Shown: positions 7-47,705 of the stretch, one piece after another
How the letters are laid out: every line of letters starts with the position of its first letter
How positions within the stretch are numbered: the stretch's first letter is position 1
The notes under the pieces: model-generated
Databases searched by the model: none
Told to the model about the DNA's origin: nothing
The model's input: the letters and a program-made list of their open reading frames with translations, nothing else
Virus record (IMG/VR): IMGVR_UViG_3300027861_000043
Coordinates: 1-50,356 of that record
Source of the DNA: a virus
Strand: one strand, 5' to 3'
DNA length: 50,356 nt
Made by a program: the position numbers and the translations under genes

Positions 7-100
7 GTAGACTCGCGGTCTACACAAACTCAGCGTAGGGGGTACAAATCGTACCTCCCTTGACTAACGTGTGACTAGGGGGTACGATTCTTACCCCCTA
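7..100. promoter_or_regulatory. Three tandem hairpins at the left end, candidate packaging (cos/pac-type) site
   Basis: Three perfect or near-perfect inverted repeats lie in a row. The first is GTAGAC at 7-12 with GTCTAC at 18-23. The second is GGGGGTAC at 38-45 with its partner at 51-58 (one G-T pair). The third is TAGGGGGTA at 76-84 with TACCCCCTA at 92-100. The GGGGGTA core recurs in all but the first, and again at 50320-50326 near the right end. In lambda-type phages the terminase binds repeated sites just upstream of the terminase genes, and terS follows here at 324. The packaging role is inference. The third hairpin could instead act in the leader of the first operon. Confidence 0.4.
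60..88 (+). promoter_or_regulatory. Sigma70-type promoter for the late/packaging operon
   Basis: TTGACT (60-65) is followed after 17 bp by TACGAT (83-88), a reasonable -35/-10 pair, about 30 bp before the first ATG at 119. The -10 lies inside the 76-100 hairpin, so anything binding that palindrome would compete with RNA polymerase. Confidence 0.45.
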
Positions 101-118
101 CATTAAGAGTTATAGAAA

Positions 119-5659: not shown

Positions 5660-5852
5660 TGTCGCAACAGCAGGTACAGGAGTTGCAACAGAATTAGCAT
5701 GGATTCCAGCAAATATAGGATGGGTGGCAAGCTTAATTGGAGCTATTGCAACAATAATTATTGTGACTCTATCAATTAAGAAGCACAGGTTAGAATATCG
5801 ATTGCTTAAAAATCGTTTAAAAATGCAAGAAAAACAACTTTTAGATGAGTAA
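5589..5852 (+). CDS. Holin-like two-TM protein
   Basis: An 87-aa protein starting at 5589 behind TTAGGAGAGAA, a strong ribosome-binding site; an upstream in-frame ATG at 5508 lacks one. Residues about 18-40 are Ala/Thr-rich and weakly hydrophobic. Residues 44-63 (IGWVASLIGAIATIIIVTLS) are a clear membrane helix. The last 23 residues are basic and coiled-coil-like. Size, topology and a charged C-terminal tail fit a class II-type holin. It ends within the start of the next small membrane protein. Confidence 0.65.
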   Translation: MNSLKQVATNLLQEPKIAAAAATSVATAGTGVATELAWIPANIGWVASLIGAIATIIIVTLSIKKHRLEYRLLKNRLKMQEKQLLDE

Positions 5853-6090
5853 TATGAAAACTTCAATGCATATTAAATTTAAACAATATAGAGTGATATA
5901 TGTTGTTGTTACAGTGTTTTTCCTTTGGTTAGGGTATGATGCTTGGGAGTGGTTTAAAACTAATTCTGGTGGATTATCTCAGGCAGCCGCCGCAGGATTC
6001 ATATCGATTTACTTAGCAGTAATTGGCGCACTGAAATACATTCTTGAAAACCTACGTCAAGACAGTGAACATGATAAGGAAGACTTGTGA
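5845..6090 (+). CDS. Small two-TM protein, second holin candidate
   Basis: An 81-aa protein (78 aa if the ATG at 5854 is used). Two hydrophobic segments, about residues 17-34 (VIYVVVTVFFLWLGYDAW) and 47-66 (AAGFISIYLAVIGALKYIL), are followed by an acidic tail ending HDKEDL. It overlaps its neighbours at both ends by 4-8 nt, so the lysis genes are translationally coupled. Its topology fits a holin or a holin/antiholin partner to the preceding protein. Confidence 0.6.
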   Translation: MSNMKTSMHIKFKQYRVIYVVVTVFFLWLGYDAWEWFKTNSGGLSQAAAAGFISIYLAVIGALKYILENLRQDSEHDKEDL

Positions 6091-6569
6091 TAAGTACTAT
6101 TTTAGAATTTCTAGGGTTGGTTAAAAAGCTTTTTACCGGAGATTATGCCAAATATGGTGTTTATGCAGTTTTTATAATGTCCCTTTTAATAGGGGTGTGG
6201 TGGGTAACAGATAAATATGGCGATATGAAAGCTTTAGCAGTAGAACAAAAGGCACTTATCAATGTGCTGACAACTTCTAATGTTGAAGCGCAATTAGCAT
6301 TATCGAAAGTCATCGAAGAAAGAGATAGTCAGCGTAAATCGTATGATACCGCTCTGGCTAATCGTTCAGTTTTAGAATCAAGACTTGCATCTACAGTGAA
6401 GGAGAAAGACGATGCCCTTAAAGTATTTGAAAAAGAGTGTGGGCGCATCGAACGGCTCATGCAAAAGAAAGCGAGTCTTATTGTTCGCTATGCTAATCGT
6501 GCTACTAACAGGTTGCATGACGACTTCAGAGAAGCCACGCGAAGTGATTCGGACAGTGACAGTAACTGA
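6087..6569 (+). CDS. Inner-membrane spanin subunit (Rz-like)
   Basis: A 160-aa protein with one N-terminal membrane helix (about 22-41, ending IGVWWV) followed by a long periplasmic coiled coil (about 45-130, rich in Glu, Lys, Leu, Ala). This is the i-spanin plan. The ORF of the outer-membrane partner lies within and beyond its 3' end in another frame (6412-6795), the classical Rz/Rz1 embedded arrangement. Spanins fuse inner and outer membranes in the last step of lysis of Gram-negative cells. Confidence 0.85.
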   Translation: MISTILEFLGLVKKLFTGDYAKYGVYAVFIMSLLIGVWWVTDKYGDMKALAVEQKALINVLTTSNVEAQLALSKVIEERDSQRKSYDTALANRSVLESRLASTVKEKDDALKVFEKECGRIERLMQKKASLIVRYANRATNRLHDDFREATRSDSDSDSN

Positions 6570-6795
6570 GAAGCAAGTCATTGTATGTCCTGATGCTCCT
6601 GAGTTAGTTTCTCCTGTATGGAAAGAAGTCATATTGGTGGTTGCTACTGCTGAAGATGGAATCAAGATATTCGGGCTTACTGAATCTCAATACAGAAATT
6701 TATCCATTAATACGCAGAATTCTTTAAAATCCATCAAAGATAGAAATGCAGTAATTGCATATTACCGTCAATGTATGGCTGACCATAACAAATGA
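6412..6795 (+). CDS. Outer-membrane lipoprotein spanin subunit (Rz1-like)
   Basis: A 127-aa precursor with a basic start (CKRKR), hydrophobic core and lipobox LLTGC; Cys35 is the predicted lipidated residue. A strong ribosome-binding site (AAGGAGAAAGACG) sits inside the i-spanin gene, which it overlaps by 158 nt in another frame. The mature part (about 92 aa) is long for an Rz1-type protein and carries two more Cys. The lipoprotein signal is the main evidence that the host has an outer membrane. Confidence 0.85.
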   Translation: MPLKYLKKSVGASNGSCKRKRVLLFAMLIVLLTGCMTTSEKPREVIRTVTVTEKQVIVCPDAPELVSPVWKEVILVVATAEDGIKIFGLTESQYRNLSINTQNSLKSIKDRNAVIAYYRQCMADHNK

Positions 6796-7700
6796 TAAGT
6801 CACCCTAATACTACTTACCTTGTTTTACCTAATGCGGTAAATGACACCATTGATTCTAGGGACTCTTTAGTGTCTTCTGCTTGGCGTGTCGAAAACATAG
6901 TATTAGGTGTTAAATTTAATCTTGGGACCGGAACTAACACCTCTGATGTCGGTTATAACCCTTTCACTAAACGATTTGGATTCATTCGGAATAATTTTGG
7001 AACTGTTTCTGAAATAGCCGAAGCAGATATTGTCAATAGTGTTACTCAACCACCTATCATTAGAACAATAACACTTAATGGAATGTTCGGTGATGACTCA
7101 GAAGGATTGTCTGATGTTTTTCCTAACCTTCTCGAAGGAGGTTATGAGTTTTGGTCATGTATAGAAAACGGTGGAAGAACTTACGGGTATAATTTTCAAA
7201 TAACAGAATCCGAGATGTTCAGCGTTAGTGATATATCACTAACTGCACGTAGACAATTACAATTCGACCAGAATGCGGCTGATACAAACTTAGCAGGAGA
7301 GGGGATAGATTACAGCATAAAAGGTAACGAACTCCTGATGGTTAGAGAAGGTGGTCAACCAACTACTACTAAGAAAGTATATCTTGCATCAAGACCGACC
7401 GATAGAGATACTGATTATTCATATTCAGATGCTGAATTTAATCCGTCGAATCCCTTTGATGGTGAGAATGTAACCGGAGACTTATCTAGTTGTGCATTCC
7501 ATGAAGCTACTGGGCATTTATTGATTTTATCTGATACTGGAAATGCTGTTTATCAATATGACAGAAGTGGCACATTAATCTCCACATTAAGTCTTGGTGG
7601 ATTATTATTTCAACCTGAAGGTATTTGTATGCATGGTGACAACCTAGTAATAATGGGTGAAACCGATGAGTGCGCTTACTGTATTTACGTGGCTCCATAA
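6792..7700 (+). CDS. Virion/adsorption protein with partial SdiA-regulated-like beta-propeller
   Basis: A 302-aa protein. Residues about 1-215 resemble no family I can name. Residues about 225-302 (LSSCAFHEATGHLLILSDTGNAVYQYD, then QPEGICMHGDNLVI) match two blades of the SdiA-regulated/beta-propeller family, in which the D-L-x-x-x-A-x-D/E and E-G-I motifs are diagnostic. Only part of a propeller is present, so it probably completes the fold by multimerising or is a fragment used as a binding module. It starts the block of putative surface proteins. Confidence 0.5.
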   Translation: MISHPNTTYLVLPNAVNDTIDSRDSLVSSAWRVENIVLGVKFNLGTGTNTSDVGYNPFTKRFGFIRNNFGTVSEIAEADIVNSVTQPPIIRTITLNGMFGDDSEGLSDVFPNLLEGGYEFWSCIENGGRTYGYNFQITESEMFSVSDISLTARRQLQFDQNAADTNLAGEGIDYSIKGNELLMVREGGQPTTTKKVYLASRPTDRDTDYSYSDAEFNPSNPFDGENVTGDLSSCAFHEATGHLLILSDTGNAVYQYDRSGTLISTLSLGGLLFQPEGICMHGDNLVIMGETDECAYCIYVAP

Positions 7701-37809: not shown

Positions 37810-37835
37810 TATTCACCCCTGTTATTTTAAGAAGG

Positions 37836-37930
37836 TGTTCAGAGACAGGAGTTGAACCTGTAATCAAAGCCTTAATAGTCACCACAACCTAGATGGAGTC
37901 GAACCATATTTCTCTACCGCAGACTGAACA
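37836..37930 (-). tRNA. Degenerate or atypical tRNA-like fold
   Basis: Read on the minus strand: 7-bp acceptor-like stem (TGTTCAG/CTGAACA). A short D-like arm (TCT-GCGGTAG-AGA, 37911-37923) follows. Next is a 4-bp arm with 7-nt loop TTCGACT (37893-37907) whose anticodon position would read CGA. A variable region of about 30 nt leads to a perfect T-arm (ACAGG-TTCAACT-CCTGT, 37845-37861) with consensus TTCRANY loop. Two extra bases lie between T-stem and acceptor, the D-arm is short, and no CCA is encoded. The long variable region would suit a serine-type tRNA. It may be a decayed tRNA or a tRNA mimic. Confidence 0.3.
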
Positions 37931-37939
37931 TTAATTAGT

Positions 37940-38038
37940 GAGGTGGAGTTAGTAAAAGGCTCAATCATTAGCCGGATTTAAACCGATTCACTAACCTACC
38001 CACAGCAATTTTATATGCTGCGGTTATAACTCCACCTC
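37940..38038 (-). ncRNA. Second cloverleaf-like RNA domain
   Basis: Closed by 12 uninterrupted base pairs, it contains in order: an 8-bp hairpin (CCGCAGCA with TGCTGTGG, one G-T pair), a T-arm-like hairpin with loop TTTAAAT between CGG and CCG, and a 4-bp hairpin GGCT/AGCC. The plan (closing stem plus three arms) parallels the neighbouring tRNA-like domain, but the T-like arm is not next to the closing stem, so it is not a normal tRNA. Confidence 0.4.
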
Positions 38039-38226
38039 TAAGGGAATCACACCCTCTATATTGGTTAATCTTTAAATGCGCCAACTGGCATTATCATCTC
38101 ATCGTCTTGGGAGTGACACCACATCATTATACTGTCCAATATAATGACAGTGTAAACACTGACTCGCTTATCGTTGGAGGGCAGCTAACCCCACCTCGGA
38201 ACTAAGTTCAACCGCCAACGAAATTA

Positions 38227-38254
38227 ATCATACACTAAATAAAAATAATTTCAA
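38227..38254 (-). promoter_or_regulatory. Leftward sigma70-type promoter of the replication arm
   Basis: On the minus strand TTGAAA (38249-38254) and TATGAT (38227-38232) are 16 bp apart. Transcription would start near 38220, exactly where the structured leader begins. It is back to back with the rightward promoter at 38262. Confidence 0.55.
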
Positions 38255-41838: not shown

Positions 41839-44292
41839 ATGCAGTATGATTTAGAGCAAGTCAGGACTCACCTCGCGTTGTTATCAGGTGAAGAAAACTC
41901 ATTAGAAACCTTTCAACATTATTTTGACCCTGACGATTTACCCAAGCGAAAAGGTTTAGCAACTCATTTTACGAATCGGCTGAATGAAAGCCTTGATTAC
42001 CTTCTTGAGATGCAAAAACATCTTTGCGGTATTTATGTGACTGTCAATAAAACAGACGGTAAAGGCAGGAAAGAAAAAAACGTCATCGGCTATCGTAACT
42101 TTTTTGTTGATTATGATGATAGTACTGAGCCATCGTGGACAATACCCCCTACCTGTACGACTAAACGTGGACCGAGAAATGGTCATGGGTTCTTTCACGT
42201 TAAAGGGGAGTGCAGCAAGGAGGACTGGATTAGAGTACAGAAACATTTAATTATGTTCTACAAAACGGACCCTGTAATGACTGACCCACCTCGCGTGATT
42301 CGTGTAGCAGGGTTCTTACATTTAAAAGATTCTAAAAACCCCCAAATGTACCGGCTTGATATCATCAATAAAGATGTCTCCTATACTGTCGATGAAATGA
42401 TTGCTTCTATGCCTCTCAATGAGGCGCAACAGGAAGCCCTTGACGATTGGGTTAATCAGGAGTCGAGAGTGGACACAGGGACCGGATATGAAGCTAATGC
42501 TGCCCATAGTGTTAGGCTACTCAATTGGGCTAAGATTCAAGCGCCCGTAGCTGTCCGTGGAACCGGCTCTAAAACAGTCCTTGGTGTTGCAGGGTGGGCG
42601 CATGATTTAGGTATTCCCTTTGACGAAACTCAACAAGTCCTATGGGAACACTATAACCCTCGCTGTGAGCCTCCGTGGTCTGATGAACCCCATGAGAAGA
42701 CAGATTTCTTTGAGACTGTTAAACGGGCCTATACAGGCGCTCATAGTGCGGCAGGTTGTCGAACATTCAAACACGCTGTTCAACAGCGCAAGCTACCCCC
42801 TCGGACTGATGGGTGGACTGCACAACCTGAGATTCTTAGTTCTGATTCTCCTGACATCGATACGAGCGAACGCGACTATGGTCGAATGAGTAAAGATGAA
42901 GCTGTTAATGCTAAGAAAATGTTAGACGCTAAGACACCGGAGATGGAAGTTGCTATCATGTTCGATGGTTACGAATACAATGGTCGAGAAATCTATCGTG
43001 AGGATAAAATGTATTACCGGTATAACGGTAAAACTTATGAGTATGTTTCCGATGATATTATCAAAGCGGAAATTCAAAAGTTCTGGTATAAGGATAAACC
43101 GTCGAGTGGGAAAATTAACGGCGTTATTGAGTCTCATAAAAACCTAGTAACTCGTAGTGGATTGGCTAACGGTACATGGCTCAATCGAAAAGATTCTGAT
43201 GGTTCAAACTATTCAGTTTTTAATAATGGCATCGTTGACCTGTCACTTGAAAAACCAATTGTCATTCCTCATTCGTGGGCTTACTTTTCGTTTGCTAGTA
43301 AATCGTATGACTATGACCCCGAAGCTAAATGTCCTGTGTTCACACGTACAATAAATGATATGTTTGAGCATGACCCCGATAATACAGTTCTACTTTTAGA
43401 ATTCATCGGCTTGTTACTCACTCATGTTTTAAAATGGCAAAAATTCTTATTCTTAAAAGGTGTTCCTCGCGGCGGTAAGGGAGTCATAACCAATCTCATT
43501 CGTAAGTTAGTCGGTGAAGAAAACTGTGCTAACCCATCGCTTCAGGATATTGTTAAAGCGCCTATTCTTCATTCATTATCGACTAAATCAGTAGCATTCT
43601 GTGATGACGTTCGCTCACTACCAATGGGTATTCGAGATACCGTATTATCCAAACTGCTTCAGCTTACCGGTTGTGATGCTCAGACATTCGATGTTAAATT
43701 CAAGGGCGCTCAAACGTGCGTTATACCGGCGCGATATGTGATGAGTTCTAATGAGATTCCAGACTTCATTGATGCCTCTGGTGCTTTGCTTGCTAGAATG
43801 CTGCTAATCACGTTCGAGAAGTCCTACAGAGGTCGAGAAAACCTTACATTGGGCGATGACCTTGCTGCTGAACTATCTGGTATCTGTAACCTCGCTACGG
43901 CTGCTTATCGTGCTGCTGATAAACGTGGTCGATTTACTGAACCTGAGTCTAGTAAGATTGAAAAAGAAATTATGCGTACTGAGTTCTTCCCCCTTTCTAG
44001 TTTCGTTACTGACAATTGTGACCTCGAAGATGATAGCTTGGTGTCAGTAACGGACCTCTATAAATCTTATCTGGTTTATGCGTCAACGAATTCCGTTCGT
44101 ATGCCATACACTAAAACGAAATTATGCAAACAGCTTCGTAGTTCTGATTTAGCTTTGCGTATGGTTAGAAAAACGATTGACGGTAAGAAAGAAAACTACT
44201 TAATCGGTATTGAATTAAATCAAGAAGCAAGGGATATTATCAGTCTCGATAATGTTACGAACTTCCCAAACAGGAGAGAAAACAATGGTTAG
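41839..44292 (+). CDS. Primase/helicase (RepB-type AEP primase fused to SF3 helicase)
   Basis: An 817-aa protein. The primase part (about 10-200) has FFVDYDD (Asp91, Asp93), GHGFFHV (His120) and DPPRVIRVAGFLHLKDSKNP (Asp149, Arg152, Arg155). A linker domain (about 210-500) follows. The SF3 helicase (about 500-720) has Walker A GVPRGGKG, Walker B VAFCDDV and motif C YVMSSNEIPDF. A C-terminal winged-helix-like part (VSVTDLYKSYLVYASTNSVRMPYTKTKLCKQLRSS) ends the protein. One enzyme can thus unwind DNA at the origin and make primers for the family B polymerase on the opposite arm. Confidence 0.9.
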   Translation: MQYDLEQVRTHLALLSGEENSLETFQHYFDPDDLPKRKGLATHFTNRLNESLDYLLEMQKHLCGIYVTVNKTDGKGRKEKNVIGYRNFFVDYDDSTEPSWTIPPTCTTKRGPRNGHGFFHVKGECSKEDWIRVQKHLIMFYKTDPVMTDPPRVIRVAGFLHLKDSKNPQMYRLDIINKDVSYTVDEMIASMPLNEAQQEALDDWVNQESRVDTGTGYEANAAHSVRLLNWAKIQAPVAVRGTGSKTVLGVAGWAHDLGIPFDETQQVLWEHYNPRCEPPWSDEPHEKTDFFETVKRAYTGAHSAAGCRTFKHAVQQRKLPPRTDGWTAQPEILSSDSPDIDTSERDYGRMSKDEAVNAKKMLDAKTPEMEVAIMFDGYEYNGREIYREDKMYYRYNGKTYEYVSDDIIKAEIQKFWYKDKPSSGKINGVIESHKNLVTRSGLANGTWLNRKDSDGSNYSVFNNGIVDLSLEKPIVIPHSWAYFSFASKSYDYDPEAKCPVFTRTINDMFEHDPDNTVLLLEFIGLLLTHVLKWQKFLFLKGVPRGGKGVITNLIRKLVGEENCANPSLQDIVKAPILHSLSTKSVAFCDDVRSLPMGIRDTVLSKLLQLTGCDAQTFDVKFKGAQTCVIPARYVMSSNEIPDFIDASGALLARMLLITFEKSYRGRENLTLGDDLAAELSGICNLATAAYRAADKRGRFTEPESSKIEKEIMRTEFFPLSSFVTDNCDLEDDSLVSVTDLYKSYLVYASTNSVRMPYTKTKLCKQLRSSDLALRMVRKTIDGKKENYLIGIELNQEARDIISLDNVTNFPNRRENNG

Positions 44293-46399: not shown

Positions 46400-46851
46400 A
46401 ATGTATCGATACACTCAATCATTCCGTCGATGAGGGCTATTTCTCCCTGCTCGACGCTCGCTATCCAGTACCGAACTGAATCGTGCTTACGGCTCAAATC
46501 TCGAAGCTTGAGAGGTATCGAAACACCCCCCGCTTCAGGTGTAGTGAATTGTTCATCAAGAATACCCCTCCTATCTAAGCTGTCGAATATACCCTTTTTA
46601 TTCATGAATTTATCTCCATTATTAAAATCGTGCGATAACCCTGTCCTTAATGCTTTTAATATAACACTTTCAACATCCACTTGTGTTCTTAAATTAAAAT
46701 CTAAACATAGTTTTTTTAAATAATCTTGAGATATCTTGCGTAGCTCGGTGGCTGTGACGTTCGTGCGGCGGGACTTGCCTACCTGATAGCCACGATTGGT
46801 TAAGCATTCAATTAAGCTTTCATCTGATATTAAATTTAATGAGCCGTTCAT
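46372..46851 (-). CDS. First gene of the leftward early operon
   Basis: A 159-aa helical protein. The N-terminal part (SLIECLTNRGYQVGKSRRTNVTATELRKISQDYLKKL) could bind DNA, and the C-terminal part has DSVRYWIASVEQGEIALIDGMIECIDTLI. AAGGAAATAAATAACC precedes the ATG. It lies about 30 nt from the predicted start of the operator-controlled leftward promoter, so it should be among the first proteins made; by position it is a candidate autoregulator of that promoter. No family recognised. Confidence 0.6.
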   Translation of the reverse strand: MNGSLNLISDESLIECLTNRGYQVGKSRRTNVTATELRKISQDYLKKLCLDFNLRTQVDVESVILKALRTGLSHDFNNGDKFMNKKGIFDSLDRRGILDEQFTTPEAGGVSIPLKLRDLSRKHDSVRYWIASVEQGEIALIDGMIECIDTLINESRSKQ

Positions 46852-46885
46852 GGTTATTTATTTCCTTATTTGTTGGTGTAAGTGG

Positions 46886-46915
46886 ATTATATACAGGTCC
46901 ACTTATTAATGTCAA
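46886..46915 (-). promoter_or_regulatory. Strong leftward early promoter embedded in operators
   Basis: On the minus strand TTGACA (46910-46915) and TATAAT (46886-46891) are both consensus, 18 bp apart. AAGTGGA-type heptamers lie upstream of the -35 (46923-46929), in the spacer (46898-46904, opposite orientation) and across the -10 (46880-46886). This is the layout of a repressible early promoter. Confidence 0.7.
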
Positions 46916-46963
46916 CTACTTTAAGTGGACCGTTAGTAATTTTTTGTACAATTTAGGGGGAGA

Positions 46964-47474
46964 GGACAAAAGTTTGGGAAAACGGACAAAAACTTTTGTC
47001 CTCCTTAAGTCTATGATTTATAACAGTTTTTCGGGTTTTTTGAGGTTGAGAGGACAAAAGTTAAAATAAAATATTTAAAATTTGGGGTAATGAAATCAAT
47101 AGCTTAGAGGTGAAAAGGACAAAAGGACACAAAATAAGGCTGTTTTGGGGTGCAGCTCTGTAGCTCCACAGCCACAGCCAGTACTAAGCTACAGTTACTA
47201 TATAAATACTAGTATATCTTTATAATAAGTAGTATATTTTGTGTCCTTTTGTCCTTTTGCCTTGTAAGTCATTGATTTATAAAGCCCAAATTTTAAATAT
47301 TATTTTTGGTTTTTGTCCAAACTTTTGTCCTCTTGCTCTGTAAGTTATTGATTTTACAGGGTAATTCGGGCTTTTTGCCTTAAAGTGCAACTTTTGTCCT
47401 CTTAGAGCAACTTTTGTCCTTTCGACCTCTAAGTCATTGATTTATAAGGCCCAAATAAAATATTTTAAATTTGG
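46964..47474. repeat. Composite repeat array between the divergent early operons, candidate origin
   Basis: Three boxes recur. Box A, CTTTTGTCC or its complement: about nine copies at 46964, 46984, 46993, 47052, 47117, 47246, 47322, 47391 and 47411. Box B, TAAGTCATTGATTTATAA: exact at 47265-47282 and 47430-47447, variants at 47006-47023 and 47341-47356, inverted at 47091-47106. Box C, an AT-rich CCCAAATTTTAAATATT or complement: 47070-47086, 47285-47301, with a palindromic variant at 47449-47474. Order A-B-C is kept in several units. The region has no convincing ORF. Iteron-like layout next to early promoters suggests origin function; this is inference. Confidence 0.6.
47070..47301. repeat. 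Imperfect 67-bp inverted repeat around an AT-rich core
   Basis: The arms 47070-47136 and 47235-47301 pair at 57 of 67 positions by my count, without gaps. The inner 24 bp (47113-47136 with 47235-47258) and the outer 17 bp (47070-47086 with 47285-47301) are perfect. The 98-bp centre holds a CAGCTCTGTAGCTCCACAGC stretch and then nearly pure A/T (about 47197-47240), suitable for unwinding. Confidence 0.85.
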
Positions 47475-47677
47475 GTATTTTAAGTGGATTTCAGGGTAAA
47501 TGAGAATTGCTCCATTAAAGGACACATATTTCCACTGGTTGAAGATAAAATGAGATTTGAAAGTAAAAATAAGTGGACTTTGACCTAAAAATAAATTTGA
47601 CAAGTGGATTTTGTTTGTGTTACCGCGTGTGCGCGTTCTATTTATAGAAAGTTTTTAAAAATAAGTGGATTATTTAA

Positions 47678-47705
47678 TTGCTAAGTGGATTATTTATGCT
47701 ATAGT
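47678..47705 (+). promoter_or_regulatory. Rightward early promoter with internal operator
   Basis: TTGCTA (47678-47683) and TATAGT (47700-47705), 16-bp spacer, with an AAGTGGA heptamer (47683-47689) filling the spacer and another 20 bp upstream. The start of transcription would be about 28 bp before the ATG at 47741. The -35 is weak, so an activator role for the operator protein is as possible as repression. Confidence 0.5.

What the first reader, a model, noticed from the sequence alone, without database searches (positions are those of the whole stretch)
47070..47301. Large imperfect palindrome with an AT-rich core: candidate replication origin
Arms of 67 bp pair at 57 positions with no gaps, the innermost 24 bp being perfect, and enclose 98 bp ending in a very AT-rich stretch. 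It lies in a noncoding region between two divergent early operons of a phage with its own primase/SF3 helicase and family B polymerase. The pairing was found by eye; origin function is inference.
Basis: partly seen in the sequence, partly recalled or inferred. Interest (0 to 1): 0.7.

Follow-up and report, generated by a model that had tools for sequence, protein, structure and literature searches.

The report
Phage replication origin with paired iterons
A large inverted repeat in a bacterial virus genome is built from many copies of one short DNA word plus likely host IHF-binding sites, arranged around the most easily melted spot of the whole sequence, which is the layout expected of the place where the virus starts copying its DNA; the same layout with a different word recurs in related and unrelated phages.

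Summary
The palindrome is real: 73-nt arms (47064-47136 / 47235-47307, 82% paired) around 98 bp, score 40.5 against at most 15.5 in 200 shuffles; no other inverted repeat in the window comes close. GGACAAAA(G) occurs 10 times, on both strands, within 46964-47419 and twice in the other 50 kb. Five composite units pair it with an IHF-type site (WATCAANNNNTTR); in four the gap is exactly 10 bp. The 40 bp at 47199-47238 are the least stable of the window.

Relatives with the same primase (34-38% identity) keep the layout (both-strand iterons, IHF-like sites, inverted repeat, AT-rich centre) with other iterons. Similar arrays abut the 3' end of primase/helicase genes in unrelated phages. The 817-aa primase ends in a predicted RFX-like winged helix.

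Best reading: an iteron-type replication origin like those of PICI/SaPI/P4 satellites, opened by the phage primase-helicase with IHF help. Inferred, not measured. Apparently new: a near-invariant 18-bp IHF-like element shared by many phages of Proteobacteria, with interchangeable iterons. Three relatives lack the array; GC skew is uninformative.

The parts
46955..47480 (.). whole proposed origin: iteron array plus inverted repeat and AT-rich centre
47064..47136 (+). left arm of the inverted repeat (73 nt)
47235..47307 (-). right arm of the inverted repeat (73 nt, 82% complementary to the left arm)
47411..47479 (-). third, partial copy of the arm (80% identical to 47246-47314)
   Evidence: families D2 and I2
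47137..47234 (.). 98-bp centre between the arms; the left part has a GC-rich hairpin (GGCTGT...ACAGCC), the right part is AT-rich
47199..47238 (.). proposed unwinding element: the least stable 40 bp of the 50-kb window
   Evidence: nearest-neighbour stability
46964..46972 (+). iteron GGACAAAAG
46984..46991 (+). iteron GGACAAAA
46993..47001 (-). iteron GGACAAAAG of composite unit 1 (4-bp gap to its IHF-like site)
47052..47060 (+). iteron GGACAAAAG
47117..47132 (+). iteron GGACAAAAG followed by GGACACAA, of the left-arm composite unit
47239..47254 (-). iterons GGACAAAAG and GGACACAA of the right-arm composite unit
47311..47330 (-). iterons GGACAAAAG (47322-47330) and GGACAAAA (47311-47318)
47391..47399 (-). 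iteron GGACAAAAG
47411..47419 (-). iteron GGACAAAAG of the composite unit with the IHF-like site at 47430-47442
47094..47106 (+). IHF-consensus site AATCAATAGCTTA, 10 bp before its iteron
47265..47277 (-). IHF-consensus site AATCAATGACTTA, 10 bp before its iteron; part of an exact TAAGTCATTGATTTATAA (47265-47282 on the + strand)
47341..47353 (-). IHF-consensus site AATCAATAACTTA, 10 bp before its iteron
47430..47442 (-). IHF-consensus site AATCAATGACTTA, 10 bp before its iteron; part of an exact TAAGTCATTGATTTATAA (47430-47447 on the + strand)
47006..47018 (-). IHF-like site with one mismatch, AATCATAGACTTA
41839..44292 (+). 817-aa primase/SF3 (D5-type) helicase, proposed initiator; C-terminal winged helix about residues 734-789
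46886..46915 (-). sigma-70-like promoter of the leftward operon (12/12 match), overlapping AAGTGGA repeats; outside the array
46880..47689 (.). AAGTGGA repeats (nine in 46682-47689, eight of them here, seven of these eight in 46880-46929 and 47571-47689, one at 47482); probable operators of the divergent promoters, a separate element
   Evidence: shared with L170

Best explanation
This is the phage's replication origin (or its main one), of the iteron type. The phage primase-helicase (41839-44292) would bind the GGACAAAAG repeats on both sides of the AT-rich centre through its C-terminal winged helix. Host IHF would bind the AATCAANNNNTTA sites, placed one helical turn from the iterons, and bend the arms so that the bound proteins converge. 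The AT-rich centre (47199-47238) would then melt, two helicase rings could load in opposite directions, and the phage polymerase would extend primers made by the same protein. Shown here: the array, its spacing, its symmetry, the low stability of the centre, the recurrence of the layout beside primase/helicase genes, and a predicted winged helix on the primase. Inferred: binding by the primase, IHF occupancy, melting and origin activity.
For: (1) 10 of 12 GGACAAAA copies of the window lie in 456 bp, on both strands. (2) Four strict IHF-consensus sites cluster at 47094-47442 (shuffles: at most 2), each exactly 10 bp from an iteron. (3) All five matches (up to 4 mismatches) to TAAGTCATTGATTTATAA in the window fall at 47006-47447. 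(4) The least stable 40 bp of the whole 50 kb is inside the array; the same holds for 12 of 16 array-bearing loci examined. (5) Relatives with the same primase at 34-38% identity keep the layout with other iterons: L170 TGCCACGGTTGGG, L323/L311/L132 TGGCACA, L167 TACGGGCA, L345 AAAGTGTC. (6) Arrays or the element lie next to primase/helicase genes of other families: DUF3987/PriCT (L006, L008, L020, L109, L314), AAA_25 with Prim-Pol or Toprim or DnaB (L228, L262, L148, L318), VapE (Xanthomonas phage XcP1), D5 (L184). (7) The primase C-terminus is a predicted winged helix; best PDB match is the RFX DNA-binding domain bound to DNA (E 1.4e-4, TM 0.80 by target). [quoted passage not shown] PMC7581432).
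Against: No replication, binding or read-depth data. Three relatives with a related primase (LMAVpVPP, 159E43-1b, KLEA5) show no both-strand iteron array in the 34-39 kb of each genome that was read. The centre of L170 is not the least stable stretch of its locus. The array sits between divergent promoters, so a regulatory role cannot be excluded. GC skew is uninformative: the switch near 47 kb follows gene direction, and third-position skew shows no break there. The link between a long C-terminal wing and presence of an array rests on one clade split. IHF binding is a consensus match only.
Confidence: 0.72

Rival explanations
1. Control region of the two divergent early operons: the repeats are operators for a phage repressor or activator, and the symmetry reflects cooperative binding or looping.
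For: It lies between divergent operons with a perfect sigma-70-like promoter at 46915-46886. L170 and the Vibrio/Shewanella relatives have the array in a comparable divergent junction.
Against: A separate repeat, AAGTGGA, overlaps both promoters and fits operators better. In unrelated phages the arrays sit just after primase/helicase genes rather than between divergent promoters (L006, L008, L020, L148, L184, L313). The centre is the least stable DNA of the window, which operators do not need.
Confidence: 0.15
2. Partition (centromere-like) or packaging/terminase recognition site.
For: Clustered repeats with IHF sites also occur at plasmid centromeres and at cos sites (general knowledge).
Against: No partition gene was found near the array; the terminase gene is at 874-2850, on the other side of the record's ends. 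The recurrent neighbours of such arrays are primase/helicase genes.
Confidence: 0.05
3. Integrase attachment region (attP) with arm-type and IHF sites.
For: IHF sites plus short repeats on both sides of a centre resemble lambda attP; one bacterial hit (L161) has an AATCANNGACTTA-GGACAAAAG stretch just after a tRNA-like 3' end.
Against: No integrase among the window proteins tested; arrays occur in lytic-type phages and beside replication genes.
Confidence: 0.03
4. Transcribed structure: terminator, ncRNA or other RNA element.
For: The arms would fold into a long hairpin.
Against: No terminator-like site and no Rfam match. Relatives keep DNA-level repeats in direct as well as inverted orientation outside the hairpin, which RNA folding does not explain.
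Confidence: 0.05

Closest known systems
Replication origins of Gram-negative PICIs (e.g. EcCICFT073 pri-rep-ori; PMC6092414)
   Same: Two sets of short iterons flank an AT-rich region; the initiator is a primase-helicase encoded by the element.
   Different: This is in a 50-kb phage with its own polymerase, 2.7 kb from the primase gene in a divergent junction. The iterons are in inverted orientation and are paired with IHF-type sites, making a large palindrome. Whether PICI origins carry the 18-bp element was not tested.
SaPI Rep / SCCmec Cch2 origins (PMC7581432)
   Same: Iterons recognised by the C-terminal domain of a self-loading helicase; origin often directly downstream of the helicase gene, as in several loci here (L184, L313, L008).
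   Different: Gram-positive hosts, other iterons; in the window the array is not directly downstream of the gene; binding is untested.
Satellite phage P4 ori/crr with the alpha protein
   Same: Phage-type primase-helicase; tblastn finds P4 alpha as a distant relative of the window primase (E 9e-7). Iterons on both strands (from memory).
   Different: P4 iterons and layout differ (from memory, not tested here).
Lambda ori and iteron plasmids (R6K, pSC101)
   Same: Initiator-specific iterons next to an AT-rich melting region; IHF helps opening in pSC101 and R6K (PMC5043065).
   Different: No O-type or RepA/Pi initiator found here; the helicase itself is the proposed initiator.

Membership tests
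Iteron-type replication origin (PICI/SaPI/P4-like) | Multiple copies of a short initiator-specific repeat clustered in under about 0.6 kb | tested here: met
   10 GGACAAAA in 46964-47419, 2 elsewhere in 50 kb
[quoted passage not shown]
   Iterons on both sides of 47137-47234; least stable 40 bp of the window at 47199-47238
Iteron-type replication origin (PICI/SaPI/P4-like) | Encoded primase/helicase initiator with a C-terminal DNA-binding domain | tested here: met
   D5-type primase/helicase; profile matches the PDB chain 7ola 'DNA primase'; predicted RFX-like winged helix
Iteron-type replication origin (PICI/SaPI/P4-like) | Origin next to the initiator gene | tested here: inconclusive
   2.7 kb downstream in the window, 1.3 kb in L170; directly downstream in L184, L313 and L008
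Iteron-type replication origin (PICI/SaPI/P4-like) | Initiator binds the iterons | not testable with these tools
   needs DNA-binding assays
Iteron-type replication origin (PICI/SaPI/P4-like) | The fragment supports replication when the initiator is supplied | not testable with these tools
   needs a replicon assay
IHF binding sites | WATCAANNNNTTR consensus, more clustered than chance | tested here: met
   4 strict sites in 47094-47442; at most 2 in shuffles; occupancy not tested
Phage attachment site (attP) | Integrase encoded by the phage | tested here: not met
   none among the proteins scanned; not every small ORF was scanned
Structured RNA / terminator | Match to a known RNA family or terminator pattern | tested here: not met

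The most novel reading that the evidence does not exclude
TTATAAATCAATGACTTA is a standard part of a modular origin cassette used by many phages of Proteobacteria: a nearly invariant IHF site is kept, while the iteron next to it is exchanged together with, or independently of, several unrelated primase/helicase initiators. If so, origins and iteron-initiator pairs of very many phages can be read from sequence alone.
Probability: 0.4. Interest if true: 0.7.

Novelty: new variant of a known kind. Interest (0 to 1): 0.55.

Why it matters
Origins of most phages that encode their own primase-helicase are unknown. The combination found here (both-strand iterons, an IHF-type element one helical turn away, and the least stable DNA in the middle) gives a simple sequence signature that can be scanned for, gives candidate iteron-initiator pairs, and predicts which protein domain reads the iterons. 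It makes origin position and IHF dependence directly testable in cultured phages such as Vibrio phage 1.055.O and Shewanella phage 1/44.

Tried and rejected
Genome-wide scan of bacterial genomes for the composite: almost all 13 hits are chance, in coding DNA. Single-protein search for close relatives in viral contigs found none; an alignment-based search worked. BLASTN of the region against phages and plasmids gave only short chance-level hits. GC-skew and third-codon skew: uninformative. Compensatory change: the three close Vibrio/Shewanella relatives have identical arms, and distant ones cannot be aligned, so this test has no power. A wing/array association in the primase C-terminus (arrays in all long-wing lineages, none in three short-wing genomes read) was checked on a tree and comes down to one clade, so it is only suggestive. 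A GRPK-type winged helix shared by the DUF3987/PriCT initiators was not found in the window. One-strand GGACAAAA clusters in long ORFs (L084, L034 and others) were left out as probable coding repeats; L007 (tandem TTTTGTCC beside an integrase-like ORF and a tRNA-like stretch) was left out, and L127 is doubtful, as both may be other kinds of repeat. The rival site at 37.8-38.3 kb has no iterons. The literature search for the element sequence found no paper in the held library.

Full report
Observation. The inverted repeat exists as described, with small corrections. The score is 40.5, against at most 15.5 in 200 dinucleotide shuffles, and the next best repeat in the window scores 16.5. Single-stranded folding gives z = -10.6.

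What it is made of. The palindrome is the middle of a larger repeat array. GGACAAAA occurs 12 times in the window, 10 of them at 46964-47419, on both strands. Read in one orientation, five composite units have the form AATCA[A/T]NNNNCTTA..GGACAAAAG or close to it: one on the top strand in the left arm, four on the bottom strand. In four of them the gap between the first element and the iteron is exactly 10 bp, in the fifth 4 bp. The first element fits the IHF consensus WATCAANNNNTTR; four strict matches cluster at 47094-47442, where shuffles give at most two. All five matches in the window to TAAGTCATTGATTTATAA with up to four mismatches are here, two of them exact. The spacer ends in AT-rich DNA that includes the least stable 40 bp and, overlapping it, the least stable 60 bp of the 50 kb. 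Outside the array, AAGTGGA repeats overlap a perfect sigma-70-like promoter of the leftward operon and a weaker one of the rightward operon; they look like a separate operator set.

The phage. The window is a virus record of a siphovirus-like phage with terminase, portal and head genes, a polymerase with family-B-like motifs, a ResIII helicase, a DUF2800 exonuclease, an Enc34-type SSB and an 817-aa primase/helicase. Relatives of the primase and polymerase are in Vibrio, Shewanella, Aeromonas and Pseudoalteromonas phages. No integrase was found among the proteins scanned.

Relatives by primase. An alignment-based search gave 24 loci. L170 (primase 34% identical) has, 1.3 kb after the primase gene, the same AAGTGGA repeats and arms of 72 and 51 nt that contain the identical TAAGTCATTGATTTATAA, but with the iteron TGCCACGGTTGGG instead of GGACAAAAG. 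Vibrio phages 1.049.O, 1.050.O and 1.055.O have 78-nt arms (score 55.5) with TGGCACA iterons and a 154-nt AT-rich centre in a divergent early junction. Shewanella phage 1/44 has the same iteron. L167 has TACGGGCA and L345 (from the L181 genome) AAAGTGTC with 47-nt arms. The layout is kept while its sequence changes, which points to selection on the layout. Against this, Vibrio phages LMAVpVPP and 159E43-1b and Aeromonas phage KLEA5 show no such array in the parts read. These belong to one clade of the primase tree, whose C-terminal wing is shorter; this agrees with the wing reading the iterons but is a single event.

Unrelated phages. GGACAAAAG clusters on both strands abut the 3' end of DUF3987/PriCT primase-helicases in L006, L008-L010, L020 and L109, and the composite abuts a Toprim/AAA_25 helicase in L148. 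L151, a phage contig with a PhoH-like and a reverse-transcriptase-like ORF, has about 150-nt arms with the composite around an AT-rich centre. The 18-mer TAAGTCATTGATTTATAA is in at least 120 viral contigs (the scan stopped at its limit), its reversed sequence in 2. 19% of 700-bp windows around it hold an 8-mer repeated at least five times, against 0.9% of random windows in the same contigs. The least stable 40 bp of the contig lies within 400 bp of the element in 42 of 114 contigs, 12.8 expected; part of this excess may come from intergenic DNA being AT-rich in general. In annotated phages, near matches are mostly in phages of Proteobacteria and intergenic, for example just after two primase genes in Xanthomonas phage XcP1, beside DUF3987 in Vibrio phage 1.243.O and beside a DnaB-like helicase in 1.076.O. 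In 12 of 16 array-bearing loci the least stable 40 bp of the whole locus is inside the array; these 16 were chosen by me, and some are close relatives of each other (L311 and L323).

The proposed initiator. The primase C-terminus matches RFX_DNA_binding and Pox_D5 below the Pfam thresholds. An AlphaFold2 model of the last 163 residues (mean pLDDT 81.6; above 85 over most of the domain) has the winged-helix order of elements, and its best PDB match is the RFX domain bound to DNA, E 1.4e-4, TM-score 0.80 by the target. From general knowledge, RFX reads DNA largely with its wing. The profile of the family matches one full-length PDB primase, 7ola (E 3.9e-20).

Mechanism. Most likely the primase-helicase binds iterons on both sides, IHF bends the arms, the centre melts and two helicases load. 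IHF is known to help opening at iteron origins of pSC101 and R6K (PMC5043065), PICI origins are described as two iteron sets around an AT-rich region (PMC6092414), and SaPI and SCCmec helicases bind iterons through their C-terminal domains (PMC7581432). Binding, melting and origin activity in this phage are inferences.

Comparison and novelty. It works like a PICI/SaPI/P4-type iteron origin. The sequence features that define that kind are met; the functional ones could not be tested. The large symmetric arms, the fixed 10-bp IHF-iteron spacing and the near-invariant IHF-like element shared by phages with unrelated initiators make it a variant that I did not find described; the held literature contains no paper with the element's sequence, but most subscription papers are not in that library.

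Open points. Why the same iteron GGACAAAAG occurs with unrelated initiators is unexplained: exchange of DNA-binding domains, convergence, or a shared binding protein are possible. Whether the palindrome matters as a cruciform or only reflects the inverted order of composite units cannot be told from sequence.

Noticed in passing
window 37810-38230: T-arm-like stretches on the minus strand (GGTTCGACTCC, GGTTCAACTCC) look like degenerate tRNA genes, but ARAGORN and Rfam find none.
   Followed up: partly
window 35-101: Second-best inverted repeat of the window, with GGGGGTACGATT-like arms near the start of the record; could be a packaging or end-related site.
   Followed up: no
window 46880-47689: AAGTGGA repeats overlapping both divergent promoters, one of them a perfect TTGACA-18-TATAAT; probable operators of an unknown early regulator, shared with L170.
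   Followed up: partly
L151:4474-5030: About 150-nt inverted repeat with the same composite unit and AT-rich centre in a contig with a PhoH-like ORF, close to a reverse-transcriptase-like ORF at 5783-6865.
   Followed up: partly
L321:6020-6080: Vibrio phage 159E43-1b, which lacks the iteron array, has a nearly perfect 28-nt hairpin at its divergent early junction.
   Followed up: no
L006, L008, L020, L109, L148, L318 and the window: The same or nearly the same iteron (GGACAAAAG) occurs beside initiators of unrelated families; unexplained.
   Followed up: partly
L007:3674-3914: Tandem TTTTGTCC array beside an integrase-like ORF and a tRNA-like stretch; may be an attachment region or another repeat class.
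   Followed up: no
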